A stretch of 64,000 nt of DNA from Niabella ginsenosidivorans (GTDB lineage: Bacteria > Bacteroidota > Bacteroidia > Chitinophagales > Chitinophagaceae): contig NZ_CP015772.1 in NCBI RefSeq assembly GCF_001654455.1, positions 4,030,001 to 4,094,000 on the forward strand, given 5' to 3'. Each line of letters starts with the position of its first letter. The first letter of the stretch is position 1. The position numbers and the translations under genes were made by a program. The notes under the pieces are model-generated. The model was given only the letters and a program-made list of their open reading frames with translations, ran no database searches and was not told where the DNA came from. Of this stretch, positions 33,637 to 57,388 are shown one piece after another.

Positions 33637-33761
33637 ACCTTAAAAATGCAACTTTTTCGCTCAAACAAAAAATAATACCTGTCCGGCTTTAAAAAATCCC
33701 CGTCACCTTGAGCAAACTATTGGTGGCCCAAATCAATGAGGCGATGACATGTAATAACTTT

Positions 33762-33932
33762 GAAGAAGCAGGCTACAGCAGTGTAGCAGTAATAAACTTA
33801 GTGTCTTAGTACCTGACCCTGAGCATTGCTTCAAAGAATGGTCCATCAATGTTTGGTAATACTGTATCAGGCAGTATTCCCGTTTGGCAGCTTGCCTTTT
33901 TGAGAACCTCTTTGGGCTGTAGCCTGCTTTTT
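33762..33932 (+). ncRNA. Predicted bridge RNA of IS110 copy C
   Basis: A closing stem pairs AGCAGGCTACAGC (33767-33779) with GCTGTAGCCTGCT (33916-33928), the latter followed by a T-run, enclosing about 135 nt with two internal loops. Compared with copies A and B, the stem differs by a compensatory C-G for T-A pair. The loops carry CCCTGAG (33817-33823), close to the insertion-junction CCTTGAG, and TTTGGCAG (33883-33890), close to the element's right end ATTGGCAG. Size and position agree with IS110-type bridge RNAs. This is a prediction from sequence only. Confidence 0.7.
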
Positions 33933-33953
33933 ATTAACTCTTAAAAAGTTGTT

Positions 33954-35267
33954 ATGTCAAAGGTAATTGAGTTTGAGCAACAAAATCCAGATGCAGCAGC
34001 CATAGATATCGGCTCCAAAAAGATTTTCGTTTCCACTGACGGGGTTACGGTAAAAAGCTATGATACATTTACGACTGGCTATCGGCAATGCATTGAAGCG
34101 CTCCTGCAACAGAAAATAAAACGGGTTTGTATGGAAGCAACGGGTATTTACTGGATAGCCTTACACCAGATGCTGGAGGAAGCAGGCATGGAAGTCTGCC
34201 TTGTAAATCCTAAAGAAGTAAAACAGGTAAAGGGTAGAAAAACCGATGTAAAAGATGCGTGCTGGATGCAAAAAATGTTTAGTGCAGGCCTGGTACGGCA
34301 AAGCTATATACCCTCAGGAAAGTTAAAGGAGTTGCGCATGATGATCCGGGAGCGGGAAGATCTTATTAGTATGGGAAGTACCTATGTAAATAAGATGCAA
34401 AAAGCATTGGAGTTAATGAATATAAAACTCACAGAAGTGATTTGTCAGATAAATGGGACAAGCGGGATCCGGATGATCGAAGCCATCTTAAACGGAGAAC
34501 GCAATAAAGAAAAGCTGCTGTCTCTGTGTCACGTAAGCATCCGTGAAAAGAAAGCACAGCAGGTAATCAATGCGCTGGAAGGCCATTATAATGAAAGCTG
34601 GTTGTTTCTATTAGAACAAAGCTTAAATCTTTGGAAGGTTCATCAGCAACAACTGTTGCTTATTGATAAACATATCGAAGGCTTGTTGTGTAATCTTGAG
34701 CATGGCAAACAGTTCATTACAAGTGAACACAAAGCCAAGCCAATACGGCATCACAAGCCCATGATAACCGGCCTGCATCAGAAATTACTAAATATTTATG
34801 GTGCAGATGCCAATTGTATTCCTGGTATCACCGATTATACACTGCTGAAATTGTTGGGAGAAGTGGGAGCAGACATGAGCCGATTCCCAACGGCAAAACA
34901 TTTTGTAAGTTGGTGTGGCCTTTGTCCGGGCCATAACCAAAGTGGTTTAAAAAGCAGAAAATCGAAAATGAACAATCATTCTAATGCCGGTCAGACCTTC
35001 CGGGAAATAGCCCAGGCATTACTCAATAGTAAGTATGTGGCAATAGGAGCTTTTATCAGAAAACTTAAGAGCAGAAAGAATGCACGAATAGCGATCAAAG
35101 CAGGTGCCAGAAAAATAGCGGAAGCCTTTTATAACCTGCTAACAAAGGGAACGCAATACGTGGAACAGGGTATTGCAAAATATGAACAGCAATTAAAACA
35201 GCGTGAACAAAACTATTTACAAAAACTGGCTTTAAAACACGGATTAAAGATCATTGAAATACAATGA
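33954..35267 (+). CDS. IS110-family transposase
   Basis: The 437-residue recombinase has an N-terminal RuvC-like DEDD domain (AIDIGSKKIFVS near 16, RVCMEATGIYWIAL near 58, and DVKDACWMQKMF near 99) and a C-terminal transposase_20 domain with IPGITDYTLLKLLGE and SWCGLCPGHNQSG. It is clearly homologous along its length to the two identical transposases at 50373 and 55721 but has many substitutions. IS110 enzymes excise and insert the element without staggered-cut duplications, guided by an element-encoded RNA. The gene is intact. Confidence 0.95.
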   Translation: MSKVIEFEQQNPDAAAIDIGSKKIFVSTDGVTVKSYDTFTTGYRQCIEALLQQKIKRVCMEATGIYWIALHQMLEEAGMEVCLVNPKEVKQVKGRKTDVKDACWMQKMFSAGLVRQSYIPSGKLKELRMMIREREDLISMGSTYVNKMQKALELMNIKLTEVICQINGTSGIRMIEAILNGERNKEKLLSLCHVSIREKKAQQVINALEGHYNESWLFLLEQSLNLWKVHQQQLLLIDKHIEGLLCNLEHGKQFITSEHKAKPIRHHKPMITGLHQKLLNIYGADANCIPGITDYTLLKLLGEVGADMSRFPTAKHFVSWCGLCPGHNQSGLKSRKSKMNNHSNAGQTFREIAQALLNSKYVAIGAFIRKLKSRKNARIAIKAGARKIAEAFYNLLTKGTQYVEQGIAKYEQQLKQREQNYLQKLALKHGLKIIEIQ

Positions 35268-35318
35268 ATTAAATAATATGTCATTGGCAGTTTTTTATTT
35301 GCAGTGCAAAAACAATGT

Positions 35319-35388
35319 CGTCACCTTGAGCGAATGCCGCTATCGCGGAAGTAGCCGAAAGGTCTCCTGAATTGAGGAGATGTCTCCC
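35319..35388 (+). repeat. REP-like palindromic repeat
   Basis: Starts CGTCACCTTGAGCG and contains CCGCTATCGCGG and the GGTCTCCTGAATTGAGGAGA hairpin. It abuts the transporter fragment and lies 29 bp after IS110 copy C. Confidence 0.6.
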
Positions 35389-35613
35389 TGCGGGAACACT
35401 GATCGGCGGCCCGCCGGGAGACCGGTTTGGCAGGAAATACATCATCTGGCTGTCCATCCTGGGCGCAGCGCCCTTTACATTACTGCTGCCTTATGCCAAC
35501 CTGTTGTGGACAGGGGTGCTTTCTGTGCTCATCGGCGTTATCATTTCCTCCGCGTTCTCTGCCATACTGGTATATGCAACGGAGCTGGTGCCGGGCAAAG
35601 TAAGTGGAAATTG
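35389..35613 (+). pseudogene. Internal fragment of an MFS (fosmidomycin-resistance-like) transporter
   Basis: The frame reads TLIGGPPGDRFGRKYIIWLS, then LLPYANLLWTGVLSVLIGVIISSAFSAILVYATELVPGKV. This holds the MFS motif G-D-R-F-G-R-K and two or three helices and resembles the middle of Fsr-type transporters. Both ends are missing: the REP-like repeat precedes it and the larger interspersed repeat begins at 35606. No other part of the gene is found nearby. Confidence 0.7.
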
Positions 35614-35857
35614 ATATTACGCCGCGCTGCGGCTTTGTGATCATTTTTCGATGGATCTATAAATATACCGGTGCGCTGCACCTTTTACTATGCGTTATGT
35701 AAAAACCCAGCTGCTCGGAAGCCAGATATCCGTAGCAGCAAACAGCCACAGCCGTAAAAAGGCGCGTAGCGCCCCAATATTAAAACTATCGTTGAGCAGG
35801 TGCTGCCAATGACCGGAAGGAATGCTGCTGCCAAAACTGAAAACCGGATACCTGTTG
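35606..35857 (-). repeat. Large interspersed repeat, copy R1
   Basis: Read on the minus strand it runs from AACAGGTATCCGG through TTTTCAGTTTTGGCAGCAGC to GGTGCAGCGCACC and GCCGCAGCGCGGC. It has the same order as R3 at 59633-59872 and its first half matches R2 at 35981-36137. Short palindromes of five-base arms with three-base centres (GGCGC-GTA-GCGCC, GGTGC-GCT-GCACC) recur inside it. The open frames within it appear to be by-products of the repeat. Confidence 0.75.
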
Positions 35858-35905
35858 TTAGCAGAACCGCAGGCCACGGTTGGTGTCTGTCTGCCCGGTA
35901 GCAGG

Positions 35906-35955
35906 TCCGCACAAATCACTTATAATTGTGGATGTTTTAACAAAAATGATAGCTG
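35906..35955 (+). repeat. TCCGCACAAA dispersed repeat, copy 1
   Basis: TCCGCACAAATCACTTATAA then TTGTGGATGTTTTAACAAAAATGA parallels 57397-57440 with mismatches. The left part of the palindrome GTTTGTG is lost here. Confidence 0.4.
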
Positions 35956-35980
35956 CTTACTTTTACCAGGCGCTACCTAA

Positions 35981-36137
35981 AAGCCCGGCTGCAGAGCAGC
36001 CAGATATCCGTAGCAGCAAACAGCCACAGCCGCAAAAAGGCGCGTAGCGCCGCAATATTAAAACTATCGTTGAGCAGGTGCTGCCAATGACCGGAAGGAA
36101 TGCTGCTGCCAAAACTGAAAACCGGATGCCCGTTATT
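35981..36137 (-). repeat. Large interspersed repeat, copy R2 (partial)
   Basis: Nearly identical to the first half of R1 from CCAGATATCCGTAGCAGC to AAAACTGAAAACCGGAT. The part that should follow, with GGTGCAGCGCACC, is missing, so this copy is truncated. Confidence 0.75.
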
Positions 36138-36240
36138 ACCAAAGCGGTTGCGGTGAAATAGCTCCTCCGCTGCTTTTGGGCAAAACTTCAGCCGGATCCG
36201 GTTATCAGCATGACGTGCGGGCAGTACCTGTGTATTTGCT

Positions 36241-36771
36241 TTATTCATCCAGCTTTTTCTCATAAGCCCGGCGGGCGCTGCCGCGGAAGTACACTTCCCC
36301 GCAATAGGTATACCTCAGCTTTTCAAAAACCCGCAACATGCCGGTATTATCAAAATTGGTATCTGCTTTAATGCTGAAAATGCCTTGTTGCCGGCACAGG
36401 TCTTCCACCGCCGTCATCACCCGGGTGCCTAATCCTTTTATTGCCTTTTCCCGGCTTACCGCCAGCCGGTGTATGACCGCATAAGGCCGCTCCGTAAGCC
36501 ATTTACCTTCCAGGGCTTCATAAGCGGGCTCCCCGTCAAAAATGAGGGCGATGCAGGCCACTATATTCCCTGTTTCATCTGCACAAACAAAGCTATACCC
36601 CTTTTCAATATCCCTGGCAATTACGGTGGGGTTGGGGTACCCATCCTGCCATTGATCACTACCCTCCTGTTTTCTTTTTTCAATGGCCTGCTGCAATAGC
36701 TGCCACACATGGTTTGCATCCGCGGTTGTTGCCTTGCGCAGGGTCAGCTCTTTATCTGGTACTGTTGTCAT
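36241..36771 (-). CDS. GNAT-family N-acetyltransferase
   Basis: The 176-residue cytosolic enzyme has the GNAT fold: LTLRKATTADANHVWQLL (strand 1 and helix 1), IVACIALIFDGEP, AVIHRLAVSREKAIKGLGTRVMTAVEDLC with the acetyl-CoA-binding loop in a modified R/Q-x-x-G-x-G/A form (K-A-I-K-G-L-G-T), and IKADTNFDNTGMLRVFEKLRYTYCGE. The substrate is unknown. A repeat-rich stretch follows it. Confidence 0.88.
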   Translation of the reverse strand: MTTVPDKELTLRKATTADANHVWQLLQQAIEKRKQEGSDQWQDGYPNPTVIARDIEKGYSFVCADETGNIVACIALIFDGEPAYEALEGKWLTERPYAVIHRLAVSREKAIKGLGTRVMTAVEDLCRQQGIFSIKADTNFDNTGMLRVFEKLRYTYCGEVYFRGSARRAYEKKLDE

Positions 36772-36863
36772 AAATGTTGTCTGTTACAACTGCAATGCTC
36801 GTAAAAAAACAGGAAAAATAATAAAAGTAATAACAGGCATATTGTTGCTTTGGGGTAAGGGCG

Positions 36864-37433
36864 CTACTGCAGCTCCACTCCTTTTAGCACCGCAACACGG
36901 TAAATGGTGTAAATAAGTTTATTTACAGATATGGCAAAGGCCGGCAAATCCTTGCCGGGCAGCTCGTCTGCCACGGATTCATTACTTATAGCATTTACCG
37001 TAAATGCGGCAATCAGCAGCTTCCATTTACGCAGCGGTGCATCCGCAAAAAATTGTTGCAGGTACAACTGCGGCTGCCGGTACTCTGCCGCAGTAAGCGG
37101 CATGGGCAGTTCCTTTACCCCTGGTAATGTGTGGCACTGCTTCTTTGTACTGTTATTACCTTTTTTATACAGCAACCAGGCCACTTCTACCAGCATCTCC
37201 AGCTCCCGGCCATAGTCAAGGGCCTGGGCTGGGCTGCCCTCCTTCCAGGCATAAGTATTGGTTAGAGCCGCAGTGCAGAACTTTTCCAGGAAAAGCGCCT
37301 GCTCCTGCGGTGGCGAAAAATCAAACAGATCCGGCAGCACGGTAAGCGGGTCTATGGCAGCGGGGTGGCGCCGGTACTTCAGCGCCAGCGCGTTTAAAAA
37401 GCAATACGCGTGGTGTTTGGGTGTTTTTGACAT
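36864..37433 (-). CDS. Uncharacterised helical protein
   Basis: The 189-residue protein has no signal peptide or membrane helix and looks mostly helical: DPLTVLPDLFDFSPPQEQALFLEKFCTAALTN, GRELEMLVEVAWLLYKKG, RKWKLLIAAFTVNAISNES, and SVNKLIYTIYRVAVLKG. I do not recognise a family. It is the first from the left in a set of three minus-strand genes (36864, 37570, 38226) without matches, separated by repeats. Confidence 0.6.
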   Translation of the reverse strand: MSKTPKHHAYCFLNALALKYRRHPAAIDPLTVLPDLFDFSPPQEQALFLEKFCTAALTNTYAWKEGSPAQALDYGRELEMLVEVAWLLYKKGNNSTKKQCHTLPGVKELPMPLTAAEYRQPQLYLQQFFADAPLRKWKLLIAAFTVNAISNESVADELPGKDLPAFAISVNKLIYTIYRVAVLKGVELQ

Positions 37434-37467
37434 GGATATTGTTTTTTAAGTACAAATATGTTTTAAT

Positions 37468-37549
37468 CGTCATGTTGAGCGCAGTGTAACGCAGCCGAAG
37501 CGTCTCTGTAATCATGAGGCCCTTCCGCTCCGCTTCGCTGCGGTGACGG
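37468..37549. repeat. REP-like palindromic repeat
   Basis: Starts CGTCATGTTGAGCGCAG, contains CGAAGCGTCTCTG and ends CCGCTTCGCTGCGGTGACGG. It separates two of the three uncharacterised genes. Confidence 0.6.
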
Positions 37550-37569
37550 AAAGAATACCTGTTATTGCC

Positions 37570-38004
37570 TCAGCCCGCCGGGCGCCGGGGTTTCTGAAAC
37601 CACTTTTTAAACCAGGAGCGCTGGTGTTTTTCCCGCCACAGCACATAGGCATCAATCATATCATCATCATGACGGGGAAATAACAGGCCCACGGCATCCA
37701 TTTCTTTAAATACCTGGCGGATCTGCTCCTCCGTATAGTATTGCTGGCCATAGCCATGGGCAATAAAGTATTCCATAAGATGCTGCCGGGCGGCCTCCCG
37801 GCTTTGCCGGTTAGCGCTTTCACAGCCCAGGTTGCTCATAAAATCCAGCAACAGGGTTTCCGGTGTTACTTCCATCAGCCGGCACAGCAGCAAGAACGGG
37901 TTGGGAAGTATAAAATGAAACTGCGCCAACCGCTTATAGGGACCGGCCTGCCATTTCATATCCGGTGCGGGATCGGTTTTGGTGGTGGGTTTTGTTTTTT
38001 TCAT
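37570..38004 (-). CDS. Uncharacterised small protein
   Basis: The 144-residue protein has a lysine/threonine-rich start, then YKRLAQFHFILPNPFLLLCRLMEVTPETLLLDFMSNLGCESANRQSREAARQHLMEYFIAHGYG, predicted helical, and a basic Trp/Lys/Pro-rich tail. There is no signal peptide. No family is recognised. The basic tail could bind nucleic acid, but this is a guess. Confidence 0.6.
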   Translation of the reverse strand: MKKTKPTTKTDPAPDMKWQAGPYKRLAQFHFILPNPFLLLCRLMEVTPETLLLDFMSNLGCESANRQSREAARQHLMEYFIAHGYGQQYYTEEQIRQVFKEMDAVGLLFPRHDDDMIDAYVLWREKHQRSWFKKWFQKPRRPAG

Positions 38005-38052
38005 GAGATTATTTTTTAAACGGGGTGTTATCTTCAGTTAAAGCATAGCTAT

Positions 38053-38113
38053 CCGGTAATTACCGGGACAGTGGGGACGGGTGCGACCTTCCGTGGTTCG
38101 GCAAGCCCACTGT
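38053..38113. repeat. Palindromes upstream of the uncharacterised gene
   Basis: CCGGTAATTACCGG (38053-38066) is a perfect 14-bp palindrome. Next to it ACAGTGGG (38068-38075) pairs with CCCACTGT (38106-38113). They lie about 50 bp upstream of the gene at 37570, on its 5' side. Confidence 0.4.
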
Positions 38114-38145
38114 GACAAATTAATAGTATTATAAAAAAACATATT

Positions 38146-38216
38146 GTCATGCTGAGCCTGTCCGACCGGAACGGGCGGGCCTGACGAAGCCTGCCCGTTC
38201 CGTTCAGGCGGGCATG
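38146..38216. repeat. REP-like repeat with strong hairpin
   Basis: CGGAACGGGC (38167-38176) and GCCCGTTCCG (38193-38202) form a perfect 10-bp stem. The flanks GTCATGCTGAGCCTG and CAGGCGGGCATGA belong to the same REP-like family. Confidence 0.6.
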
Positions 38217-38225
38217 ATTCTATTA

Positions 38226-38714
38226 TTACGGCGGCATAGCCCCGGGGAAGGCGGTAACAATGGTGCCCGCGGCATCCGTAATTACGGTAATAGAGCTCAC
38301 AGGCAGGCCGCGGCTGTTATACCCAATGGTAATGCCCGCATCATATACGTGGCAGCGGTTGCCGGCATGGGCCTGTCCGCCGGGTGCTGCGGGTTGCCGG
38401 CAGGCATCCCTTATACAGGCCACAATTTGCGGTATGGGCAGGGTAAACTTGCTGGCCAGCGAAGCTTGTGCGCCCACCGGCGGGTGGCATGGCGGTTTGT
38501 AATAATGGCGTTCCAGTATATGGGCCAGCGCCTTTACGCTCAGGTACCCGCTTTTGCGCAGCAGCTTTTTACGGTGCTTTACGGGCAGCTGGTAAATCAA
38601 CCCTTCCTGCAATTGTTGCAGCCAGCTTTGGATGTCTGCCAGCAAAAAGAGCAGGAGCAGCCATTCCTCCTCGTTAAAAATGGTGTTCTGTACAGGTGTA
38701 GTAACGGCGTTCAT
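38226..38714 (-). CDS. Uncharacterised protein with possible toxin-like C-terminus
   Basis: The 162-residue protein starts at 38714 (MNAVTTPVQNTIF). The helical N-terminal half, FNEEEWLLLLFLLADIQSWLQQLQEGL and KHRKKLLRKSGYLSVKALAHILERHYYKPP, is followed by a beta-rich end, CHVYDAGITIGYNSRGLPVS and TVITDAAGTIVTAFPG. The last strand pair and the phrase V-x-T-D-x-x-G-x-I-V-T-A-F-P-G recall C-termini of some secreted nuclease toxins, but I cannot confirm this. An upstream ATG at 38831 would add residues coded by the inverted repeat and was rejected. Confidence 0.55.
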   Translation of the reverse strand: MNAVTTPVQNTIFNEEEWLLLLFLLADIQSWLQQLQEGLIYQLPVKHRKKLLRKSGYLSVKALAHILERHYYKPPCHPPVGAQASLASKFTLPIPQIVACIRDACRQPAAPGGQAHAGNRCHVYDAGITIGYNSRGLPVSSITVITDAAGTIVTAFPGAMPP

Positions 38715-38784
38715 AACGGTGGTTTTAGCAAAATTTCGGAAACCGGCCACCCAACGCATAAAGAAGCGCGGGTTGGTCCTTACC

Positions 38785-38894
38785 GGCTTTGAAGGGCTAC
38801 GACACCCCCGACTCCAAATAAGAACGCCCACGCTATATGGTGAGCGTTTACCTTATTTTTCCGGAGTCGTTGAAAGGTCGTAGTTTTCAAAACC
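38785..38894. repeat. 110-bp imperfect inverted repeat of nested stems
   Basis: Nested arms pair in order from outside: TTTGAA/TTCAAA, CTACGAC/GTCGTAG (38797, 38877), CGACTCC/GGAGTCG (38809, 38863), AAATAAG/CTTATTT (38816, 38852), AACGC/GCGTT (38823, 38844) and CAC/GTG around a GCTATATG loop, with short bulges. It lies between two oppositely directed transcription units. It could be a structured RNA, a MITE, or a relic of a mobile-element end. Confidence 0.65.
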
Positions 38895-39059
38895 AGATCA
38901 ATAAAGCAAACACTTATGTGCTCGCAAAATAACTTAAAGCTTATGTATCATCAAAAAGCATAAAATTTATTTGATTTCATAGTCCAAATATAAACAAAAA
39001 TGTATTTAAAATCACAAAAATTAAAAATTTGTGCATGATTTTTTTTTCTGGAATGTTAA

Positions 39060-39099
39060 GTGCCTGCTTTTTTGTTAGTTAGTAATGTAAATACTGCCC
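39060..39099 (+). repeat. Duplicated 40-bp leader, copy 1
   Basis: The 40 bp before the first XRE gene match the 40 bp before the third (39534-39573) with two mismatches, including CTTTTTTGTTA and AATGTAAATACTGCCC directly ahead of ATGGCC. The second XRE gene lacks it. Confidence 0.7.
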
Positions 39100-39318
39100 A
39101 TGGCCATGCAAAAAAAACGCTATAACCGGATAAAAATAGTGCTGTTAGAAAATGAAAAGTCAAATATATGGCTTGCTGAAGAATTGAGCGTAAGCAGGAC
39201 GACTGTTTCTAAATGGTGCACTAACGACAACCAACCTACGGTTGAAACATTATTTAAAATTGCGGAGGTGCTGGGGGTGAATGTGTGTGAGCTATTGGTG
39301 ACGGGGAAGAAAAATTAA
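39100..39318 (+). CDS. Small XRE-family HTH regulator 1
   Basis: The 72-residue protein is a single Cro/CI-type HTH domain: NRIKIVLLENEKSNIWLAEE, LSVSRTTVSKWCTNDNQP and TVETLFKIAEVLGVNVCELL. It begins in a duplicated leader. Such regulators often accompany restriction-modification systems, and the hsd operon lies just beyond on the opposite strand, so control of that operon is likely but unproven. The next paralogue starts 2 bp after its stop. Confidence 0.88.
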   Translation: MAMQKKRYNRIKIVLLENEKSNIWLAEELSVSRTTVSKWCTNDNQPTVETLFKIAEVLGVNVCELLVTGKKN

Positions 39319-39320
39319 TT

Positions 39321-39533
39321 ATGGCAGAAAAACGAATACTTAACCGGATCAAAAGCGTACTGGCTGATAAGGATAAAACGAATTTGTGGCTTGCCGAACA
39401 ATTGGGAAAAAATAAAAATACTATCTCAAAATGGTGCACCAACGATCAGCAGCCTACGCTGGAAACCTTGTTTGATATTGCTGCACTTTTGAAAGTGGAT
39501 GTACGTGAGCTATTGGTAAGTACGAAAAAATAA
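39321..39533 (+). CDS. Small XRE-family HTH regulator 2
   Basis: The 70-residue paralogue reads NRIKSVLADKDKTNLWLAEQ, LGKNKNTISKWCTNDQQP and TLETLFDIAALLKVDVRELL. It differs from its neighbours mainly in the recognition helix (KNKNTISK against SRTTVSK), so it may bind another operator. It has no leader of its own and is probably translated with gene 1. Confidence 0.85.
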   Translation: MAEKRILNRIKSVLADKDKTNLWLAEQLGKNKNTISKWCTNDQQPTLETLFDIAALLKVDVRELLVSTKK

Positions 39534-39573
39534 GTGCCAGCTTTTTTGTTAATTAGTAATGTAAATACTGCCC
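39534..39573 (+). repeat. Duplicated 40-bp leader, copy 2
   Basis: This matches 39060-39099 at 38 of 40 positions and directly precedes the ATG of the third XRE gene, indicating that leader and gene were copied as one unit of about 474 bp. Confidence 0.7.
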
Positions 39574-39789
39574 ATGGCCACACAAAAGAGACGTTTCAAC
39601 CGAATAAAGATTGTCCTTATTGAAAAGGAAAAATCAAACATCTGGCTTGCAGAACAGGTAGGTGTTAGTAAAGCTGCTGTTTCTAAATGGTGCACCAATG
39701 ATAATCAGCCTACAGTTGAAACCTTATTTAAGATTGCAGAAGTACTGGATGTGGAGGTTTGTGAGTTGCTGGTGACGGGGAAGAAATGA
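39574..39789 (+). CDS. Small XRE-family HTH regulator 3
   Basis: The 71-residue protein is closest to regulator 1 (NRIKIVLIEKEKSNIWLAEQ, VGVSKAAVSKWCTNDNQP, TVETLFKIAEVLDVEVCELL). Together with the shared leader this points to a duplication of gene 1 after gene 2 was in place. The recognition helix changed from SRTTVSK to SKAAVSK. Confidence 0.88.
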   Translation: MATQKRRFNRIKIVLIEKEKSNIWLAEQVGVSKAAVSKWCTNDNQPTVETLFKIAEVLDVEVCELLVTGKK

Positions 39790-39864
39790 TCCCATTGAAT
39801 GAAGCACTATTGTAAAGCGATTAGTTTTTAAATGAGGGTATGCAGATGAATGCCGGTATTTTCG

Positions 39865-40020
39865 TTAAGCAACATTTATTTTAAGCAGCCAGCACAAAGT
39901 TAGCAGCGCTAAAAGGAACACCATAACCAATACTAAGATGGTAATACTTTTCCTTGTTGGGTTGTTGGCTTCCAACTTAATTCCCCAAAAACTGATTTTT
40001 ATATTTTCTTCTTTTGCCAT
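39865..40020 (-). CDS. Small single-span membrane protein
   Basis: The 51-residue protein (start at 40020, MAKEENIKISFWGIKLEAN) has a cytosolic head and one membrane helix, ITILVLVMVFLLALLTLCWLL. A full -7 promoter match lies 6 bp upstream of the start, which supports a real, almost leaderless gene; the longer frame from 40062 would begin upstream of this promoter. Function unknown. It sits between the XRE cluster and hsdM. Confidence 0.55.
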   Translation of the reverse strand: MAKEENIKISFWGIKLEANNPTRKSITILVLVMVFLLALLTLCWLLKINVA

Positions 40021-40025
40021 TAAGG

Positions 40026-40033
40026 CAAAGGTA
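40026..40033 (-). promoter_or_regulatory. Bacteroidota -7 promoter element for the small membrane protein
   Basis: The minus strand reads TACCTTTG followed by C, a full TAnnTTTGY match, just upstream of the ATG at 40020. Confidence 0.5.
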
Positions 40034-40113
40034 ATTTGCCTTATTCGTCTAAAAAATAGCAAGAAGTGACTATAGCTGTTTATCGAGCCATGAAATTATC
40101 TTTCGATTTGAAG

Positions 40114-48780: not shown

Positions 48781-48820
48781 AAAAAATAAATTGGAAAACT
48801 GCTTTTAACCTATAAGAAAT

Positions 48821-49354: not shown

Positions 49355-49368
49355 AAAACAGGATCATG

Positions 49369-49432: not shown

Positions 49433-49475
49433 AACAGGTGATGCAGGTTGTTGAAAATGAATCCCATAAAAGGAA

Positions 49476-49575: not shown

Positions 49576-49723
49576 AAAAAATAATTTGTCACGATTATTA
49601 ATGCCTCACCATGACAAAGCAATACACTGTTAAATAATAGTAAATACAACGCCTGCCTGTTGCAGCACAGAAGCGGGATTACGAGGTTTGGGGTATTATT
49701 TAACCTTGTAAAACTTAAAGAAA

Positions 49724-50146
49724 ATGCCTAACTATTCTGTAGACCAACTGACCACAGTTGCGGACTGCGATGCGGTGCTGAGCATTGCCACCAAAGAACA
49801 AAAAGACCTGGAATGGAAAAAGCTTTCCATTGAACGGCAAAAGGAAATGTACTCCGAAAATGCCGTGGAAATTACCACGGAGCTGGCGGCCAAAGAAGCG
49901 GAACTAACGGCGCTGGACGCCGTAATTGCCGGCCTGCCGGAGGGCGACCTGAAGGAGGAGAACATTAAAAAAAGAAAGCGCACGGAGTACAGCATTTTTT
50001 TGCTGACCGACCGTAAGGCGAATTACGGCGCCGTGGCCCTGCTGGACAAAGAGTACGACCTGCAACAGGTGCTGCGCCAGCTGGAGGAAACGGCTGTTTT
50101 TATTGCGGAAGTGGAAGCCCGCAAGGCGGCCGTTCCGCAACAGTGA
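49724..50146 (+). CDS. Small coiled-coil protein of unknown function
   Basis: The 140-residue protein is rich in Glu, Lys and Ala and looks like two long helices (AVLSIATKEQKDLEWKKLSIERQKEMYSENAVEITTELAAKEAELTAL and DKEYDLQQVLRQLEETAVFIAEVEARK) that could form a hairpin coiled coil. It has no signal peptide or membrane helix. No family is recognised. It stands alone between two REP-like repeats. Confidence 0.6.
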   Translation: MPNYSVDQLTTVADCDAVLSIATKEQKDLEWKKLSIERQKEMYSENAVEITTELAAKEAELTALDAVIAGLPEGDLKEENIKKRKRTEYSIFLLTDRKANYGAVALLDKEYDLQQVLRQLEETAVFIAEVEARKAAVPQQ

Positions 50147-50203
50147 GCGGTTCTGTAAAACCTGTTTTGAAGCCGCAGCGCATTAAACGGAACCTTTCTT
50201 TTA

Positions 50204-50345
50204 CCCTCGTCATTCCGACTGCTTCTTTCCCTCGTCATTCCGAGCGCAGCCGAGAACAATTTCACCGAAGGTAAATCTCTGACTTATAAAGAGACCGCTC
50301 CCTGTCTACCGGACAGGCCGGCGCTCTCCCGCTCCTGGCGGGATC
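50204..50345. repeat. Tandem REP-like repeats beside IS110 copy A
   Basis: CTCGTCATTCCGACTGC (50204) and CTCGTCATTCCGAGCGC (50230) are two repeat starts. They are followed by AAATCTCTGACTTATAAAGA and a palindromic GCTCTCCCGC / GCGGGATC end. IS110 copy A begins at 50346. Confidence 0.6.
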
Positions 50346-50372
50346 GGTGCCAATGACAAGATATGTAATGCA

Positions 50373-51683
50373 CTATATTTCAACTAATTTCAAGTTGTGT
50401 TTTGTAGCCAGTTTCAATAAATACTGTTGCTCGCGTTGCTTTAATTGCTGTTCATATTTAGCAGCTCCTTGTTCTAAATAAGCTGTCCCTTTAGTCAGTA
50501 AGTTATAAAATGCAATAGCAATTTTTCTGGCTCCTGCTTTTATTGCAATTGCGGGACCTTTCCTGGTGCGTATTCTGCGTATAAATGTTCCAATGGCTAT
50601 AGGTTTGCTATTGAGCAGCGATTGTGCGATCTCCCTGAATATCTGGCCCACTCTGGAACTGTTTTTCATTTTTGCTTTCCTGCTGCGGCTGCCGCTTTGG
50701 TTATGACCAGGGGAAAGCCCGCACCAGCTTACATAATGCTTTTCCGTAGGAAATCTACTCAGATCGGTACCTGTTTCTCCCAGCAGCTTCAACATAGAAT
50801 AGTTGGTTACTCCCGGCAGACAGCCCGCATCTACACCGTATATATTGAGCAATTTTTGATTTAAATCCTTAATCATTGGCTTATGATGGCGTACGGGCTT
50901 CTCCTTATGTACCGGCGCTACAAATGAACTACCTTGCTCCAGAAAAGAAAGCAACACTTCCATACGCTGATCTACTATGAGTATTTGCTGCTCATGAATT
51001 TTCCAAAGCTTGAGGTTCTGTTCCAACAAGAACAGCCAGCTTTCATTGTAGTTGCCTTCTAAGGCCATCAATACCTCGTCTGCCTTTTTATCTTTTATAC
51101 TTTTGTGACACAGGCTTAATAATACCTTTCCGTCCCTTTCCCCTCTAAGGATCGCCTCTATCATACGGATACCACTGACACCAGTAATCTGAGAAATAAC
51201 CTCCGTCAATTTGATGTTCATCAACTCTAATGCCTTCTGCATTTTATTTACATAACTGCTGCCCATACTGATAATATCTTCCCGCTCCCGCATTAGCATC
51301 CGGAGTTCTTTCAATCTACCGGCCGGTATATAGCTTTGCCGTACCAATCCTGCACTAAACATTTTCTGCATCCAACAGGCATCCGCAACATCTGTCTTCC
51401 GACCTTTTACCTGCTTTACCTCTTTGGGATTTACCAGGCATACACAGAAACCGGCTTGCTCCAGCAGCTCATGCAGCGCAATCCAGTAGACGCCTGTAGC
51501 CTCCATACATACAGTTTTCACCTGCTGGCTCCTAAGATCTTCAATACACTTACGATAGCTAAACGTAAAAGTATCGTAACTTTTAACCGTAATCCCATCA
51601 CAGGAAACGAAGATTCTCTTTGAGCCGATATCAATAGCGGCTGCACACGCATTGTGTTGTTCAAAACTGACTAAATTTGACAT
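50373..51683 (-). CDS. IS110-family transposase (copy A)
   Basis: The 436-residue recombinase has the DEDD residues D18 (AIDIGSKR), E61 (CMEATGVYW), D98 and D101 (TDVADACWMQ), and a C-terminal domain with LPGVTNYSMLKLLGE and SWCGLSPGHNQSG. IS110 enzymes form Holliday-like intermediates and leave no target duplication. It should act with the RNA coded just upstream. Intact and identical to the copy at 55721. Confidence 0.96.
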   Translation of the reverse strand: MSNLVSFEQHNACAAAIDIGSKRIFVSCDGITVKSYDTFTFSYRKCIEDLRSQQVKTVCMEATGVYWIALHELLEQAGFCVCLVNPKEVKQVKGRKTDVADACWMQKMFSAGLVRQSYIPAGRLKELRMLMREREDIISMGSSYVNKMQKALELMNIKLTEVISQITGVSGIRMIEAILRGERDGKVLLSLCHKSIKDKKADEVLMALEGNYNESWLFLLEQNLKLWKIHEQQILIVDQRMEVLLSFLEQGSSFVAPVHKEKPVRHHKPMIKDLNQKLLNIYGVDAGCLPGVTNYSMLKLLGETGTDLSRFPTEKHYVSWCGLSPGHNQSGSRSRKAKMKNSSRVGQIFREIAQSLLNSKPIAIGTFIRRIRTRKGPAIAIKAGARKIAIAFYNLLTKGTAYLEQGAAKYEQQLKQREQQYLLKLATKHNLKLVEI

Positions 51684-51706
51684 AACTACTTTTTTAAGTA
51701 TTAATT

Positions 51707-51880
51707 AAAAAAAGCAGGTTACAGCTCAAAGAGGTTCAATAAAAAAGCAATGTGCCAAACGGGAATGCTGCTGCAAACAGTATCACCAAACATTAATGCA
51801 CCATTCTTTGAAGCAAGTGTCGACAGGAGGTACAAAACACTAATCGATACGACGGCTACGCTGCTGTAACCTGCTTCTTT
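51707..51880 (-). ncRNA. Predicted bridge RNA of IS110 copy A
   Basis: On the minus strand AGCAGGTTACAGC (51875-51863) pairs with GCTGTAACCTGCT (51725-51713), perfect over 13 bp and extendable by an A-U tract; a T-run follows. Between them one loop holds CGTCGTATCGA (51854-51844) and TGTCGAC (51825-51819), the second TTTGGCAC (51759-51752). The first loop resembles the insertion-site sequence CGTCATCTCGAC. The second resembles the element's right end ATTGGCAC. Identification as a bridge RNA is by position, size and these matches. Confidence 0.72.
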
Positions 51881-51936
51881 CAAAGATACCACTTGTCATT
51901 ACTCATTAATTTTGATCCCTAATTAACAAGTCGAGA

Positions 51937-51998
51937 TGACGAATGGGGAGTACGGCTCCGCTACGGTCGAGGTGACGAACAAAGAGTGGTCGGGGTGA
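51937..51998 (-). repeat. REP-like sequences flanking IS110 copy A
   Basis: TGACGAATGG, GGTCGAGGTGACGAAC (51967) and GGTCGGGGTGACGAAC (51985) are three partial REP units in a row, all on the minus strand. The IS end sits in the first of them. Confidence 0.6.
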
Positions 51999-52066
51999 CG
52001 AACAAAAGCCGTTTGGGATAATGAATGGAAATGAAGGAGCGCTGCCCGGTTTGTATGCACAGGCCA

Positions 52067-54460
52067 TTATTCCATTCTTAAACTCTTTACGGGGTTGGCC
52101 ACTGATGCCTTTATTGCCTGGTAGCCCACGGTAAGCCATGCAATCACTTCGGCAATTAAAATGGTTAATAAAAACAGCCCCATGCCCAAATGGACCCGGT
52201 ATGCAAAATTTTGCAGCCACCGGTGCATTAAGTAATAGGCTATTGGGCTGGCAATTAAAAATGCGATGCCGATGAGCAGCGTAAATTCTTTTGAGAACAG
52301 ATAAAGGATGCTGCCTGCGGATGCGCCCAATACCTTACGGATGCCTACTTCTTTGGTACGCTGCACGGCCATAAAGGAAACAAAGCCATACAGGCCCAGG
52401 CAGGAAATAAATATGGCAATGCCCGCAAATATTTTGAACAATTGGGAGAGCTGGTGCTCCTGCCTGTAAAAGCCGGCAATCTTCTCATCCAGGAACTGGT
52501 ATTCGTAAATAAAATCGGGGTAGGTCTTGTTCCAAAGCCGTTCTATTGCCGCCAGTGTTTGCTTCATCTGTTGCGGTTGTATTTTTATATTGAACAGCCG
52601 GAAGAACATGCTGTTTGAACTAAGCACTATTGGTTTCATTTCCTCCTTCAGCGAATAGCCGTTAAAATCTTTTACCACCCCCACAACCGGGGCATTTATT
52701 TTTCCATCCCAAAAACTTATTTTTTTACCAATGATGCCTTCGGGATTTGTAAACCCTAATTTTTTTGCCATCATTTCATTGACCACAAACCCGTTTACGG
52801 TATCGGCGGGGTTATAGGGTCTGCCCGCGATGAACGCAATATTATAGGTTGTAAAATAATTGGCATCGGCCCATTTCAAGTCGGCTTTGAACCCTGCTTT
52901 TTTTGCGGCGTTATCGAATATGAAATCATCGTCCCAACCTGCCTGATCCATAGGGCTGAACCCGCTGAGACTCAGATCTTTTATCCCGGTCTGTTGCTGC
53001 AGTTGCATTTTTAATGCATCCAACTTAGAGCGGGCCGTGTCATTAGCTGTCGGCACTGTAATGATGGCCTCTTTGTCAAAACCCACATCCGCATTTTGAA
53101 AAAAATTCATCTGGTGCACCACCACTAATGTGCCAATGATCAAAATTTGTGCAATGGCAAACTGAAAAACAACCAGCGCCTTCCTCATAGAAAAACCACC
53201 CGCCGTTTTGCCGGTAAATTTATTTTTAAGAACGGCAATGGGATTAAAGCCCGACAAAACAATGGCGGGATAAAAGCCGGATAATAAGGTAACACCCATA
53301 ATGAGGCTGCATAAAAAGACCATTAAAGAATAACCGAACTGTATCTTTACGGATGTTTGTAACAAATGGTTCAGCAACGGCAATGCAATAAAGGCTACCC
53401 CTACAGCTATAATAACAGAAGCCAGCGTAATGAGGAAGGTTTCACTTAAGAACTGGATGATCAGCTGCATTTTGCTGCTGCCCAAAACTTTTCGGATGCC
53501 TACTTCTTTTGAACGGTTTACGGCCTGTGCCGTAGCCAGGTTGATAAAGTTAATGCAGGCAATAATTAACAGGAACAAACTTATTAAGCTTAACGCGGTG
53601 ATTAGTTCTTTACTGAAGGTTTTGCCGCTAAAAGTTCCAAACGCGCGCTCATAGTGTATATTGTGTAACGGTTGTAATATATAACCCTGGTTTGCATATT
53701 CGGCCGGCGTGTACTTTTTCACTAAAGCCTTGAGATCGCTTTCCAGCTGCTCTGCCGGCATGTTTTCGGGAAGCACCACGAAGGTGTTCAAAGATCCGTC
53801 CTGGGCGATCCAGTCCTTTGAAATATCTTCCTGTACCGAGGATTTAAAAGAAAACACTACCTGCAGCGGAAAGTCGGTATTGACTGGTGTATTTTGCAGG
53901 ATACCGGTTACCTTGAAAATATTGTCATTATACTTAATCAGGTTACCGATGGCGGTATGCCAGTTTCCAAAATATTTTTCTGCGATCTGCCGTGTCAGCA
54001 CAACGGTATTGATTTCCGCTAAAGCTGTTTTTGGATCGCCCGCCAGGAAGGGAAAATTGAATATGCTGAAGAATTCGGGTTCGGCGTAAAACACCTGTTC
54101 TTTAAATTTTTTTTGTGGTGTATGGGCTTTATCATTTATTATGGTGATCTGCTGATCGTTCCGCGCATAGATGCGGGCAACCTGTTCCAGCTGCGGATAA
54201 TCTGCCCGCAGTGCTTCTGCTACGGGAAGGGCACTCCCCTGCGAATAACTCATTCCCTCCGGTGTTTTGTTTGCGGCTACTACCCTGTAAATGCGTTCTT
54301 TGTTTTTATGAAAATTATCAAACCCGGTTTCATATTGAATTAATAAGAACACAAGCAGGCAGGCGGCAATGCCTACGGCTAACCCAACGGTATTAATAGC
54401 CATATAAGTTTTATGACTGCGTAAATTTTGCCATGCGGTTTTTAAGTAGCTTTTTAACAT
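52067..54460 (-). CDS. FtsX/MacB-type ABC transporter permease
   Basis: The 797-residue inner-membrane protein has the duplicated MacB arrangement of many Bacteroidota: an N-terminal helix (about 20-42), a periplasmic MacB core (about 45-280), three helices (about 285-400, with RSKEVGIRKVLGSSKMQLIIQFLSE), a further helix and second periplasmic domain, and three final helices with RTKEVGIRKVLGASAGSIL. Such proteins work with a separate ATPase in mechanotransmission or lipoprotein/antimicrobial export. No ATPase gene is adjacent. Confidence 0.9.
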   Translation of the reverse strand: MLKSYLKTAWQNLRSHKTYMAINTVGLAVGIAACLLVFLLIQYETGFDNFHKNKERIYRVVAANKTPEGMSYSQGSALPVAEALRADYPQLEQVARIYARNDQQITIINDKAHTPQKKFKEQVFYAEPEFFSIFNFPFLAGDPKTALAEINTVVLTRQIAEKYFGNWHTAIGNLIKYNDNIFKVTGILQNTPVNTDFPLQVVFSFKSSVQEDISKDWIAQDGSLNTFVVLPENMPAEQLESDLKALVKKYTPAEYANQGYILQPLHNIHYERAFGTFSGKTFSKELITALSLISLFLLIIACINFINLATAQAVNRSKEVGIRKVLGSSKMQLIIQFLSETFLITLASVIIAVGVAFIALPLLNHLLQTSVKIQFGYSLMVFLCSLIMGVTLLSGFYPAIVLSGFNPIAVLKNKFTGKTAGGFSMRKALVVFQFAIAQILIIGTLVVVHQMNFFQNADVGFDKEAIITVPTANDTARSKLDALKMQLQQQTGIKDLSLSGFSPMDQAGWDDDFIFDNAAKKAGFKADLKWADANYFTTYNIAFIAGRPYNPADTVNGFVVNEMMAKKLGFTNPEGIIGKKISFWDGKINAPVVGVVKDFNGYSLKEEMKPIVLSSNSMFFRLFNIKIQPQQMKQTLAAIERLWNKTYPDFIYEYQFLDEKIAGFYRQEHQLSQLFKIFAGIAIFISCLGLYGFVSFMAVQRTKEVGIRKVLGASAGSILYLFSKEFTLLIGIAFLIASPIAYYLMHRWLQNFAYRVHLGMGLFLLTILIAEVIAWLTVGYQAIKASVANPVKSLRME

Positions 54461-55073
54461 AACGGGCGTGCTGTTAAGAGTTGAGCAAGAACAATTATGC
54501 TTAAAGGTTTCAATAAAAATGCCATTTTTTTATTCATCTGAAAAGCAATGGAATGCAAATATGCAGAAAGTAAAAATGTACGCTTTTGATACAGTGGTTG
54601 TTCATTTACAAGACAAGGCCGTTGCTTATAATGAACCGGGATCATTCTGATCTCGCTTCCGGTCAGTGCAGAAAGACCGGCGTAGCCATAGTTTGTATCC
54701 GCACAAACCACTTAAGACAGTAGTAATACGGAAGTGACATTAACCAGACCGAAAAGTACCCCGAAGACGCAATACTTTTTTGTTGGTCTGTAATGAATTT
54801 CACATATGTATTATATCCCGCTGTTCCGAACCTTCGGAACGCAGACTTCTGTTATTGGCGGAAGCGCTGATGGGCGGTTGCCGGTGCTGTTCCCCGCCTC
54901 GCCGGCAGGCAGGTGTGATTGCTGTAGGGAGTATCCAGTGACCTCTTTCTTTTGGCCCTTGCGTATAATTAAGCTGCGGTAGTTGCCGCAAAACACCTGT
55001 TTATTGCTGCGAATGAATATTTACAAAATCAATTTATTGCCGCATTTTTGTAATAAGAATAAAACTTACTAAA
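54461..55073. other. Intergenic region
   Basis: This 613-bp gap has no supported gene. It holds one copy of the GTTTGTGTCCGCACAAAC-type repeat and a GC-rich stretch near 54850-54920 with short palindromes (GCCTCGCCGGCAGGCAGG). Confidence 0.4.
54691..54708. repeat. GTTTGTATCCGCACAAAC dispersed repeat, copy 2
   Basis: Imperfect palindrome matching 57389-57406 in 17 of 18 positions. The following bases do not continue the match as far as in copy 3. Confidence 0.4.
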
Positions 55074-55538
55074 ATGGCCCCTCATCAAAAATTAAAATTC
55101 AGCACTACATTGCTGCAATCCGGTAAAACAGCCACGGGTATAAAAATTCCGGATCAGCTTATTGAAAAACTAAATGCAGGTAAAAAACCAGCCGTTAAAG
55201 TTACCATCAATGGGTTTACTTACCGGAGCACCGTGGCGGTAATGGGTGGCGCCTTTATGGTGGGAGTAAGCGCAGAGAACCGTGCAGGTGCCAAAGTAAA
55301 CGGAGGTGATCTGATTGATGTGGCAATTGAGCTGGATACGGAACCCCGTGAAGTGGAAATACCGGTTGAGTTTAAAAAAGCACTGGACAAAAATGCAAAA
55401 GCAAAAAAAGTATTTGAAACATTGTCCAACAGCAGGAAAAAGGCACTTACATTGCCTGTTGCTAATGCAAAAGCCGCGGAAACCAAACAAAGAAATATTA
55501 CCAAAGCGATCGACGTTTTAACGGGAGCCGGTAAATAA
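55074..55538 (+). CDS. DUF1905 / YdeI-like protein
   Basis: The 154-residue protein has an N-terminal DUF1905 barrel (KLKFSTTLLQSGKTATGIKIPDQLIEKL, and TINGFTYRSTVAVMGGAFMVGVSAENR) and a short YdeI-like helical end (PVEFKKALDKNAKAKKVFETLSNSRKKAL). It has the same architecture as the gene at 23769 but a shorter C-terminal domain. Function unclear; some relatives protect against bacteriocins. It lies between two repeat-rich regions. Confidence 0.8.
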   Translation: MAPHQKLKFSTTLLQSGKTATGIKIPDQLIEKLNAGKKPAVKVTINGFTYRSTVAVMGGAFMVGVSAENRAGAKVNGGDLIDVAIELDTEPREVEIPVEFKKALDKNAKAKKVFETLSNSRKKALTLPVANAKAAETKQRNITKAIDVLTGAGK

Positions 55539-55561
55539 GGTTACAAACATACAAGGAAGGA

Positions 55562-55693
55562 AATGAAGCCGGATCCGATAGCTATCGGATCCGACCAAAG
55601 TGAAACGAAGTGCCTGCCGGCCGGTAGGCGGGGAGGAATCTCAATTACCGCGTGGAGACGGCTCCGCTTCGGTCGGAGTGACGAACAAAAATT
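55562..55693. repeat. REP-like repeats beside IS110 copy B
   Basis: GGATCCGATAGCTATCGGATCC (a perfect palindrome near 55570-55591), GGGGAGGAATCTCAATTACC and CGGTCGGAGTGACGAAC (55668-55685) are parts of the REP-like family. IS110 copy B follows directly. Confidence 0.6.
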
Positions 55694-55720
55694 GGTGCCA
55701 ATGACAAGATATGTAATGCA

Positions 55721-57031
55721 CTATATTTCAACTAATTTCAAGTTGTGTTTTGTAGCCAGTTTCAATAAATACTGTTGCTCGCGTTGCTTTAATTGCTGTT
55801 CATATTTAGCAGCTCCTTGTTCTAAATAAGCTGTCCCTTTAGTCAGTAAGTTATAAAATGCAATAGCAATTTTTCTGGCTCCTGCTTTTATTGCAATTGC
55901 GGGACCTTTCCTGGTGCGTATTCTGCGTATAAATGTTCCAATGGCTATAGGTTTGCTATTGAGCAGCGATTGTGCGATCTCCCTGAATATCTGGCCCACT
56001 CTGGAACTGTTTTTCATTTTTGCTTTCCTGCTGCGGCTGCCGCTTTGGTTATGACCAGGGGAAAGCCCGCACCAGCTTACATAATGCTTTTCCGTAGGAA
56101 ATCTACTCAGATCGGTACCTGTTTCTCCCAGCAGCTTCAACATAGAATAGTTGGTTACTCCCGGCAGACAGCCCGCATCTACACCGTATATATTGAGCAA
56201 TTTTTGATTTAAATCCTTAATCATTGGCTTATGATGGCGTACGGGCTTCTCCTTATGTACCGGCGCTACAAATGAACTACCTTGCTCCAGAAAAGAAAGC
56301 AACACTTCCATACGCTGATCTACTATGAGTATTTGCTGCTCATGAATTTTCCAAAGCTTGAGGTTCTGTTCCAACAAGAACAGCCAGCTTTCATTGTAGT
56401 TGCCTTCTAAGGCCATCAATACCTCGTCTGCCTTTTTATCTTTTATACTTTTGTGACACAGGCTTAATAATACCTTTCCGTCCCTTTCCCCTCTAAGGAT
56501 CGCCTCTATCATACGGATACCACTGACACCAGTAATCTGAGAAATAACCTCCGTCAATTTGATGTTCATCAACTCTAATGCCTTCTGCATTTTATTTACA
56601 TAACTGCTGCCCATACTGATAATATCTTCCCGCTCCCGCATTAGCATCCGGAGTTCTTTCAATCTACCGGCCGGTATATAGCTTTGCCGTACCAATCCTG
56701 CACTAAACATTTTCTGCATCCAACAGGCATCCGCAACATCTGTCTTCCGACCTTTTACCTGCTTTACCTCTTTGGGATTTACCAGGCATACACAGAAACC
56801 GGCTTGCTCCAGCAGCTCATGCAGCGCAATCCAGTAGACGCCTGTAGCCTCCATACATACAGTTTTCACCTGCTGGCTCCTAAGATCTTCAATACACTTA
56901 CGATAGCTAAACGTAAAAGTATCGTAACTTTTAACCGTAATCCCATCACAGGAAACGAAGATTCTCTTTGAGCCGATATCAATAGCGGCTGCACACGCAT
57001 TGTGTTGTTCAAAACTGACTAAATTTGACAT
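55721..57031 (-). CDS. IS110-family transposase (copy B)
   Basis: The 436-residue protein is the same in every residue as that of copy A, with DEDD residues D18, E61, D98 and D101 present. The gene is intact. Confidence 0.96.
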   Translation of the reverse strand: MSNLVSFEQHNACAAAIDIGSKRIFVSCDGITVKSYDTFTFSYRKCIEDLRSQQVKTVCMEATGVYWIALHELLEQAGFCVCLVNPKEVKQVKGRKTDVADACWMQKMFSAGLVRQSYIPAGRLKELRMLMREREDIISMGSSYVNKMQKALELMNIKLTEVISQITGVSGIRMIEAILRGERDGKVLLSLCHKSIKDKKADEVLMALEGNYNESWLFLLEQNLKLWKIHEQQILIVDQRMEVLLSFLEQGSSFVAPVHKEKPVRHHKPMIKDLNQKLLNIYGVDAGCLPGVTNYSMLKLLGETGTDLSRFPTEKHYVSWCGLSPGHNQSGSRSRKAKMKNSSRVGQIFREIAQSLLNSKPIAIGTFIRRIRTRKGPAIAIKAGARKIAIAFYNLLTKGTAYLEQGAAKYEQQLKQREQQYLLKLATKHNLKLVEI

Positions 57032-57054
57032 AACTACTTTTTTAAGTATTAATT

Positions 57055-57228
57055 AAAAAAAGCAGGTTACAGCTCAAAGAGGTTCAATAAAAAAGCAATG
57101 TGCCAAACGGGAATGCTGCTGCAAACAGTATCACCAAACATTAATGCACCATTCTTTGAAGCAAGTGTCGACAGGAGGTACAAAACACTAATCGATACGA
57201 CGGCTACGCTGCTGTAACCTGCTTCTTT
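57055..57228 (-). ncRNA. Predicted bridge RNA of IS110 copy B
   Basis: Identical to the RNA region of copy A: closing arms at 57223-57211 and 57073-57061, loop segments CGTCGTATCGA and TGTCGAC, and the TTTGGCAC donor-like segment. The insertion-site sequence next to this copy reads TGTCGTCTCGAC. Confidence 0.72.
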
Positions 57229-57388
57229 CAAAGATACCACTTGTCATTACTCATTAATTTTGATCCCTAATTAACAAGTCGAGACGACAAATGAGAAAGC
57301 ACCGTCATTGCGACCAGACAGCACAATCACAACAGAAAGGCCCACCTTCGGACGTTTTAAAATAAAAAAGCGGGCCTTCACTGCCGTG

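What the first reader, a model, noticed from the sequence alone, without database searches (positions are those of the whole stretch)
33706..57284. Compensatory base change in the closing stem of predicted IS110 bridge RNAs
In copies A and B the arms are AGCAGGTTACAGC and GCTGTAACCTGCT; in copy C they are AGCAGGCTACAGC and GCTGTAGCCTGCT. The one differing pair went from T-A to C-G on both sides, though the arms lie about 135 nt apart. Both types have a T-run right after the 3' arm and sit between the element's left end and the transposase start. This is direct evidence for a conserved RNA of about 170 nt, as in IS110-type bridge RNAs. Its description in a Bacteroidota element with this shape may be new.
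Basis: partly seen in the sequence, partly recalled or inferred. Interest (0 to 1): 0.82.

Follow-up and report, generated by a model that had tools for sequence, protein, structure and literature searches.

The report
Mirrored guide RNA of IS110 jumping genes
Three jumping-gene copies in this bacterial genome carry a conserved guide RNA that appears to pair with both the insertion site and the element's own ends, but with its two target guides in the opposite order to the best-studied relative, which would make it a new variant of RNA-guided DNA insertion.

Summary
Relatives turn it into strong evidence: on a sequence-only alignment of 16 RNAs, 113 cells change on both sides of a pair, 38.5 expected. 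On 90 RNAs with a phylogenetic null, the 18 best covarying pairs all lie in five helices: closing stem, target hairpin, donor hairpin.

Guides appear by covariation. The 3' target guide reads as left target plus core (172 of 250 identities, 87.5 expected). The 5' target guide pairs with the right target's top strand. The 3' donor guide reads as the right end. The 5' donor strand repeats a left-end segment about 20 nt inside the core, on an unexpected strand.

So this is a bridge RNA by sequence evidence, with target-guide order opposite to IS621 (control) and like that reported for IS1111, although it lies upstream of the recombinase gene. New variant of a known kind; no transcript was measured.

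The parts
33713..35290 (+). IS110-type element C, 1578 bp with one AG core; left target GTCACCTTG-AG, right end GTCATTGGC-AG
   Evidence: Junctions compared over copies in the same genome
50347..51929 (-). IS110-type element A, 1583 bp with one AC core
   Evidence: Junctions compared over 6 copies
55695..57277 (-). IS110-type element B, same type as A, AC core
33954..35267 (+). recombinase of C, 437 aa: RuvC-like DEDD domain plus Transposase_20 domain
   Evidence: Pfam PF01548, PF02371; NCBIfam IS110 RNA-guided transposase 205.6 bits
50373..51683 (-). recombinase of A, 436 aa
55721..57031 (-). recombinase of B, 436 aa
   Evidence: ORF of the same length and relative position; DNA printed
33762..33931 (+). 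bridge RNA region of C
   Evidence: covariance model R1, 137.3 bits (C is one of the model's sequences)
51710..51880 (-). bridge RNA region of A
   Evidence: R1, 132.5 bits (A is one of the model's sequences)
57058..57228 (-). bridge RNA region of B
   Evidence: R1, 132.5 bits
33767..33779 (+). closing stem P1, 5' arm, C
33916..33928 (+). closing stem P1, 3' arm, C
51863..51875 (-). closing stem P1, 5' arm, A
51713..51725 (-). closing stem P1, 3' arm, A
57211..57223 (-). closing stem P1, 5' arm, B
57061..57073 (-). closing stem P1, 3' arm, B
33789..33798 (+). C guide 1, 5' side of target loop (pairs top strand of right target in the family; C's own right flanks match poorly)
   Evidence: family test
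33816..33823 (+). C guide 2, 3' side of target loop, ACCCTGAG: left target plus AG core
51843..51853 (-). A guide 1, 5' side of target loop
   Evidence: family test
51819..51826 (-). A guide 2, CTGTCGAC: left target plus AC core
33883..33890 (+). C guide 4, 3' side of donor loop, TTTGGCAG: right end plus AG core
51752..51759 (-). A guide 4, TTTGGCAC: right end plus AC core
33845..33851 (+). C donor-loop 5' strand, ATCAATG
33732..33738 (+). C left-end segment X, ATCAATG, same strand as the RNA, 20 nt after the core
51791..51797 (-). A donor-loop 5' strand, ATTAATG
51904..51910 (-). A left-end segment X, ATTAATG, 20 nt after the core
33755..33762 (+). TAACTTTG, Bacteroidota-type -7 promoter box in front of the RNA of C (consensus recalled)
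   Evidence: 13 of 55 relatives against 0.87 expected
51881..51888 (-). TATCTTTG, the same box in A

Best explanation
The element's left end encodes a bridge RNA of about 170 nt, probably read from a promoter just upstream, that folds into a long closing stem holding a target-binding hairpin and a donor-binding hairpin. [quoted passage not shown] The recombinase (DEDD plus serine) would then exchange strands at the two-base core (AG for C, AC for A/B). Shown by sequence: the structure and three guide-DNA correspondences. Inferred: transcription, binding to the recombinase, catalysis.
For: Structure. Guide 2 against left target, 172/250 identities at one register only, 52-75 at the four neighbouring registers, 0 of 5000 permutations reach it, n = 50; the last core letter also covaries (50 of 50 against 46.1). 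Guide 1 against right-target top strand: 190 against 148.9 +/- 8.5, 0 of 4000, n = 65; opposite orientation at most z 1.8. Guide 4 against right end: 266 against 228.4 +/- 4.8, 0 of 4000, n = 55. A has AC in target, right end and both 3' guides, C has AG. Uninterrupted C target present exactly twice in the genome. IS621, read by eye in the same way, gives the published order. Promoter box in front of the RNA in 13 of 55.
Against: No transcript data. C's own guide 1 shares little more than the core dinucleotide with most of its right flanks (by eye), so right-target pairing must be weak or dispensable there. The right end does not always show the guide's core: AG in 43 of 52, AC in 4 (one of them A, whose guide has AC), AA in 4, TG in 1. 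Permutations do not keep relatedness of elements. For guide 1, neighbouring registers also score (z 3.1 to 4.1) and 22 registers were tried. 15 of 97 sources gave no RNA match. Rfam has no match up to E 1.
Confidence: 0.87

Rival explanations
1. The stem is a cis-acting leader or attenuator of the recombinase mRNA, without guide function.
For: It lies directly upstream of the recombinase start and in A, B and C ends in a T-run.
Against: Loop segments covary with insertion-site DNA that is not part of the element; T-run in only 10 of 55 relatives.
Confidence: 0.05
2. The arms are an inverted-repeat DNA site bound by protein, not an RNA stem.
For: Two-sided changes also arise in palindromic binding sites (general knowledge; the pair change itself is).
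Against: Arms lie about 136 nt apart, four further nested helices covary, including G-U type changes; a separate subterminal inverted repeat exists that could serve as protein site.
Confidence: 0.03
3. It is a bridge RNA with IS621 geometry, and the reversed guide order comes from wrong boundaries or strand assignment.
For: Boundaries of most relatives were inferred from a REP-like consensus, not from empty sites.
Against: Junctions of C and A rest on several copies and, for C, an exact empty site; only one register gives signal for guide 2; the IS621 control reads correctly.
Confidence: 0.05

Closest known systems
IS621 bridge RNA (IS110 group; PMC11208160, PMC11208158)
   Same: RNA in the left end upstream of the recombinase, similar length (177 nt there, about 170 here); target hairpin then donor hairpin, each with two guide strands; two-base core; REP targets; DEDD plus serine recombinase
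   Different: [quoted passage not shown] here a closing stem encloses both hairpins and the 3' target guide does that. IS621 donor guides flank the core; here the 5' donor strand matches DNA about 20 nt inside the left end. Recombinase 326 aa against 436-437 aa
IS1111 seekRNA (ISEc11, ISPa11, ISKpn4; PMC11187229)
   Same: top-strand complement precedes bottom-strand match; subterminal inverted repeats present
   Different: seekRNA downstream of the gene, recombinase 330-350 aa, inverted repeats usually 11-13 bp; here RNA upstream, 437 aa, best inverted match 4-11 bp (43 of 50 at least 6), the left one well inside the end
ISEc21 (IS110 group; PMC11187229)
   Same: RNA upstream of the gene
   Different: guide order opposite to the present elements; recombinase 358 aa

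Membership tests
IS110 superfamily | RuvC-like DEDD domain (PF01548) plus C-terminal domain with serine (PF02371) | tested here: met
   three of the four DEDD positions and the SG motif align with IS621 (the first D lies before the aligned stretch); D18, E61, D98, D101, S330 invariant in the 5 aligned proteins
IS110 group | long non-coding end with the RNA upstream of the gene | tested here: met
IS110 group | no or only 2-3 bp subterminal inverted repeat | tested here: not met
   longest exact inverted match mean 7.26 bp against 5.79 permuted (z 9.6, 0 of 4000) and 5.07 letter-shuffled, n = 50
IS1111 group | RNA downstream of the gene | tested here: not met
IS1111 group | top-strand complement 5' of bottom-strand match in the RNA | tested here: met
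   order in IS1111 taken from PMC11187229
Bridge RNA | target loop with two strands complementary to opposite strands of the target | tested here: met
Bridge RNA | donor loop with two strands complementary to the circle junction at the core | tested here: inconclusive
   3' strand met; 5' strand matches a subterminal left-end segment on the unexpected strand, no convincing match at the core
Bridge RNA | transcribed and bound by the recombinase | not testable with these tools
   needs small-RNA sequencing and binding assay
IS621-type bridge RNA | 5' target guide pairs with bottom strand of left target | tested here: not met
   control

The most novel reading that the evidence does not exclude
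This is a third architecture of bridge RNA, mirror-handed to IS621: a closing stem, right-target guide first and left-target guide second although the RNA is upstream, and a donor loop that grips one end at the core and the other end about 20 nt inside, beside a subterminal inverted repeat, pairing with the bottom strand at both ends. It would imply a donor complex organised differently from IS621, shared by elements from Bacteroidota to Verrucomicrobiota, Cyanobacteria and Betaproteobacteria, and able to move mini-elements that carry only the two ends.
Probability: 0.5. Interest if true: 0.8.

Novelty: new variant of a known kind. Interest (0 to 1): 0.68.

Why it matters
Bridge RNAs are the basis of a new class of programmable recombinases, and the solved structures found here are of the IS621 and ISCro4 type. 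A common branch in which the target guides are swapped and one donor guide is displaced would show that handedness is not fixed by where the RNA lies, would give ready-made natural reprogramming pairs, and would make the link between the IS110 and IS1111 groups testable. Most guides can now be read from sequence for this branch.

Tried and rejected
A pseudoknot between CTTTGAAG in front of the closing stem and CTTCAAAG inside the RNA was suspected in C by eye; it was not tested, and most of its 5' part lies outside the RNA alignments. Donor 5' strand against the core-flanking left end: no convincing register (best z 2.6 among 32), which led to the search of the whole left end. Handshake-type pairing: first base after the core in the donor loop against the first right-target base, z 3.7 among 40 combinations; the counterpart in the target loop z 1.4; suggestive only. 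Viral contigs gave 35 loci, mostly distant partial hits. Rfam nothing. No structure prediction was run.

Choices that could bias: left targets were picked by a REP consensus (GTCATNNNGAG, score at least 7, 30-75 nt from the RNA), blind to three of the five guide letters compared; of the other two, letter 1 faces the fixed A (5 of 50 identical, untestable) and letter 2 faces the consensus T, which varies because one or two consensus mismatches are allowed. 114 rows gave 63 clean and 50 non-redundant. One of the 50 (one L068 copy) has as left flank the right end of a neighbouring element. Further matches (L052, L056, L063, L072, L082, L097, L100) were seen by eye and not counted. Right targets: 15 of 65 were typed by hand, five loci were left out. 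The right-end pattern was written after seeing right ends; permutation controls for the shared letters. In one search register 1 also scored (z 3.1). In one search the 9-letter-window variant of the reverse-complement control had z 2.1. IS1111 order is taken from the paper, not re-derived.

Papers: PMC11208160 outline, sections 5, 6, 12, 13, 20, 43 and passages, figures not held; PMC11187229 sections 6, 9, 12 and passages; PMC11208158 passages; PMC9769881 passages; all others search listings. That the mirrored order or mini-elements of this branch are not described is said only for these searches and texts; Fig. 6d and Extended Data Fig. 10c of PMC11208160 may show such structures, and of the 8 papers listed only one was looked into.
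Full report
Observation. C differs from A/B at one pair, on both sides. A and B are the same RNA, so this is one comparison.

What the elements are. The three ORFs downstream are recombinases of 436-437 aa (ORFs); those of C and A match the RuvC-like DEDD domain and the Transposase_20 domain and NCBIfam's IS110 RNA-guided transposase, and C's aligns with the IS621 and ISCro4 proteins in the PDB. The genome holds 11 copies of the RNA, 5 of C type and 6 of A type. Copies compared at both junctions place the ends: A type, CGTCAT..CG-AC | TTGTTAATTAGG ... GTCATTGGC-AC | CGAA in the clearest copies; C type, CGTCATCCCG-AG | TAAACTATTGG ... GTCATTGGC-AG | CGCAGCC in the clearest copies. The targets are REP-like repeats, and the joined C target occurs twice uninterrupted and once more with one mismatch. 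For the A type the degenerate consensus gave two places, each with one mismatch.

The RNA. Relatives came from genome contigs (80 loci kept of 424) and from protein searches of 294, 396, 395 and 395 genomes, partly the same ones. On a MAFFT alignment of 16 RNAs the structure has five helices; 89.6% of cells pair (70.8% shuffled, 35-47% slid), 25 of 34 pairs change on both sides, 113 cells change on both sides against 38.5 +/- 5.4; further pair types 54 against 48.2, reached by 13 of 500 shuffles. A covariance model from these finds the RNA in 82 of 97 sources at E up to 0.1 (86 matches; the 16 training RNAs among them), including Verrucomicrobiota, Cyanobacteria and Betaproteobacteria by record title. 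Then a sequence-only alignment of 90 RNAs was tested in the manner of R-scape, which was not at hand: substitutions inferred by parsimony on a FastTree tree were re-placed at random, 60 times. The 18 best pairs exceed every simulation. 14 of them are pairs of the structure; the other four extend or shift its helices by one to three columns, and one of these (columns 10-162) is canonical in only 61% of sequences and G-G in C. Helices: closing stem; outer and inner stems of the target hairpin; outer and inner stems of the donor hairpin. From rank 23 on, non-pairing columns appear, as expected of noise.

Target guides. The 3' strand of the target loop has five variable letters followed mostly by GAG (GAC in A; CAG, AAG, GAA elsewhere). 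In 50 non-redundant elements these five equal the five letters before the last three of the left target in 172 of 250 cells; permuted 87.5 +/- 7.1; shifted by one or two 52-75. Letters 2-5 carry the signal; letter 1 faces a constant A and cannot be tested. Differences of wobble type (G for A, T for C) occur. [quoted passage not shown] neighbouring registers are also raised (z up to 4.1), probably because the loop length varies; the opposite orientation reaches z 1.8 at most. C's own guide 1 is a poor match to its right flanks. Close relatives with different guides have matching different left targets, for example L056/L057, L060/L067, L065/L070, L087/L088; for L056 the left flank was read by eye.

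Control. In IS621, taken from two E. coli records, the strand equal to the left target (ATCGGGCCT for ATCAGGCCT) lies on the 5' side of the loop and GTAG, complementary to core plus right target, on the 3' side (read by eye), as published (PMC11208160). The present elements have the opposite order. Siddiquee et al. state that the top-strand complement comes first in IS1111 and second in the IS110 member ISEc21 (PMC11187229). So the order here is that of IS1111, while the RNA is upstream as in IS110.

Donor. The 3' strand of the donor loop equals the right end: 266 against 228.4 +/- 4.8, 0 of 4000, n = 55. The second core base at the right end is not strict: AG in 43 of 52, AC 4, AA 4, TG 1. 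The 5' strand does not convincingly match the left end at the core in either orientation. Instead it repeats a segment in the left end: longest exact same-strand match 6.17 against 4.76 permuted, z 13.0, 0 of 3000, n = 77; reverse complement z 0.6, or 2.1 with a 9-letter window. With 74 elements and more controls: same strand z 12.8, reverse complement 0.2, flank further out 0.2, start of the coding region 2.5; 28 of 74 have an exact match of 7 or more, 46 do not. Of 46 elements with a located left end, 20 have such a match, and it starts 18-26 nt after the core in 19 and at 32 in one; at 20 in A and C. In 26 of the 28 a TGAC or TGAA, the start of the inverted repeat shared with the right end, lies within 7 letters of its end (repeat: z 9.6, n = 50). 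As the sequence is the same as the RNA, the RNA could pair only with the bottom strand there. Why, I do not know; it does not fit IS621.

Expression. TAnnTTTG, the Bacteroidota -7 box (consensus recalled), stands within -25..+5 of the RNA in 13 of 55 relatives, shuffled 0.87 +/- 0.96, largest 7; 42 lack an exact box there. A T-run after the stem is present in 10 of 55.

Mini-elements. Four copies of 336-338 bp and one of 205 bp share the first 36 nt of the left end of C-type copy L010 with one or two substitutions, and at least 11 nt of its right end; all five have a REP-like left target, four a REP-like right flank. They have no recombinase (longest stop-free stretch 74 codons); the RNA model does not hit them. 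In one, L022, the right core is AC. They look mobilised in trans.

Verdict. The gain is the guide map and its mirrored order. A figure in PMC11208160 that I could not see may already show such a member; in the texts read and searched I found no statement of it.

Noticed in passing
L019, L021, L022, L024 (336-338 bp) and L020 (205 bp), own genome outside the window: Non-autonomous mini-elements with the ends of C, no recombinase and no bridge RNA, inserted at REP-like targets.
   Followed up: partly
L013, reverse complement of its first 420 bases (G000:C1:5406500-5408800): Two head-to-tail units of about 58 bp, each ending in GTCATTGGCAC like the right end of A-type elements.
   Followed up: no
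L173 query 79-151 in genome G629: 56 of 64 matches in this genome are short solo copies of the sequence around the left end of a related element; may be the REP-like target or further mini-elements.
   Followed up: no
window 35682-36141 and 39057-39786: Direct repeats of 182 bp (91%, spacing 278) and 256 bp (79%, spacing 474) downstream of element C.
   Followed up: no
window 33713 and 35291-35301: The window copy of C differs from the other C copies at the first left-end base and has a right flank that is not REP-like, perhaps a rearranged or decayed junction.
   Followed up: no
right ends of L047, L068, L069, L071, L073, L074, L097, L100: The core letters at the right end differ from the AG of the usual core, as if the second base came from the target side of a mismatched core.
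   Followed up: partly
window 51710-51888 and left ends of relatives: The likely RNA promoter box lies inside the left end, whereas in IS621 the promoter is formed across the circle junction.
   Followed up: partly
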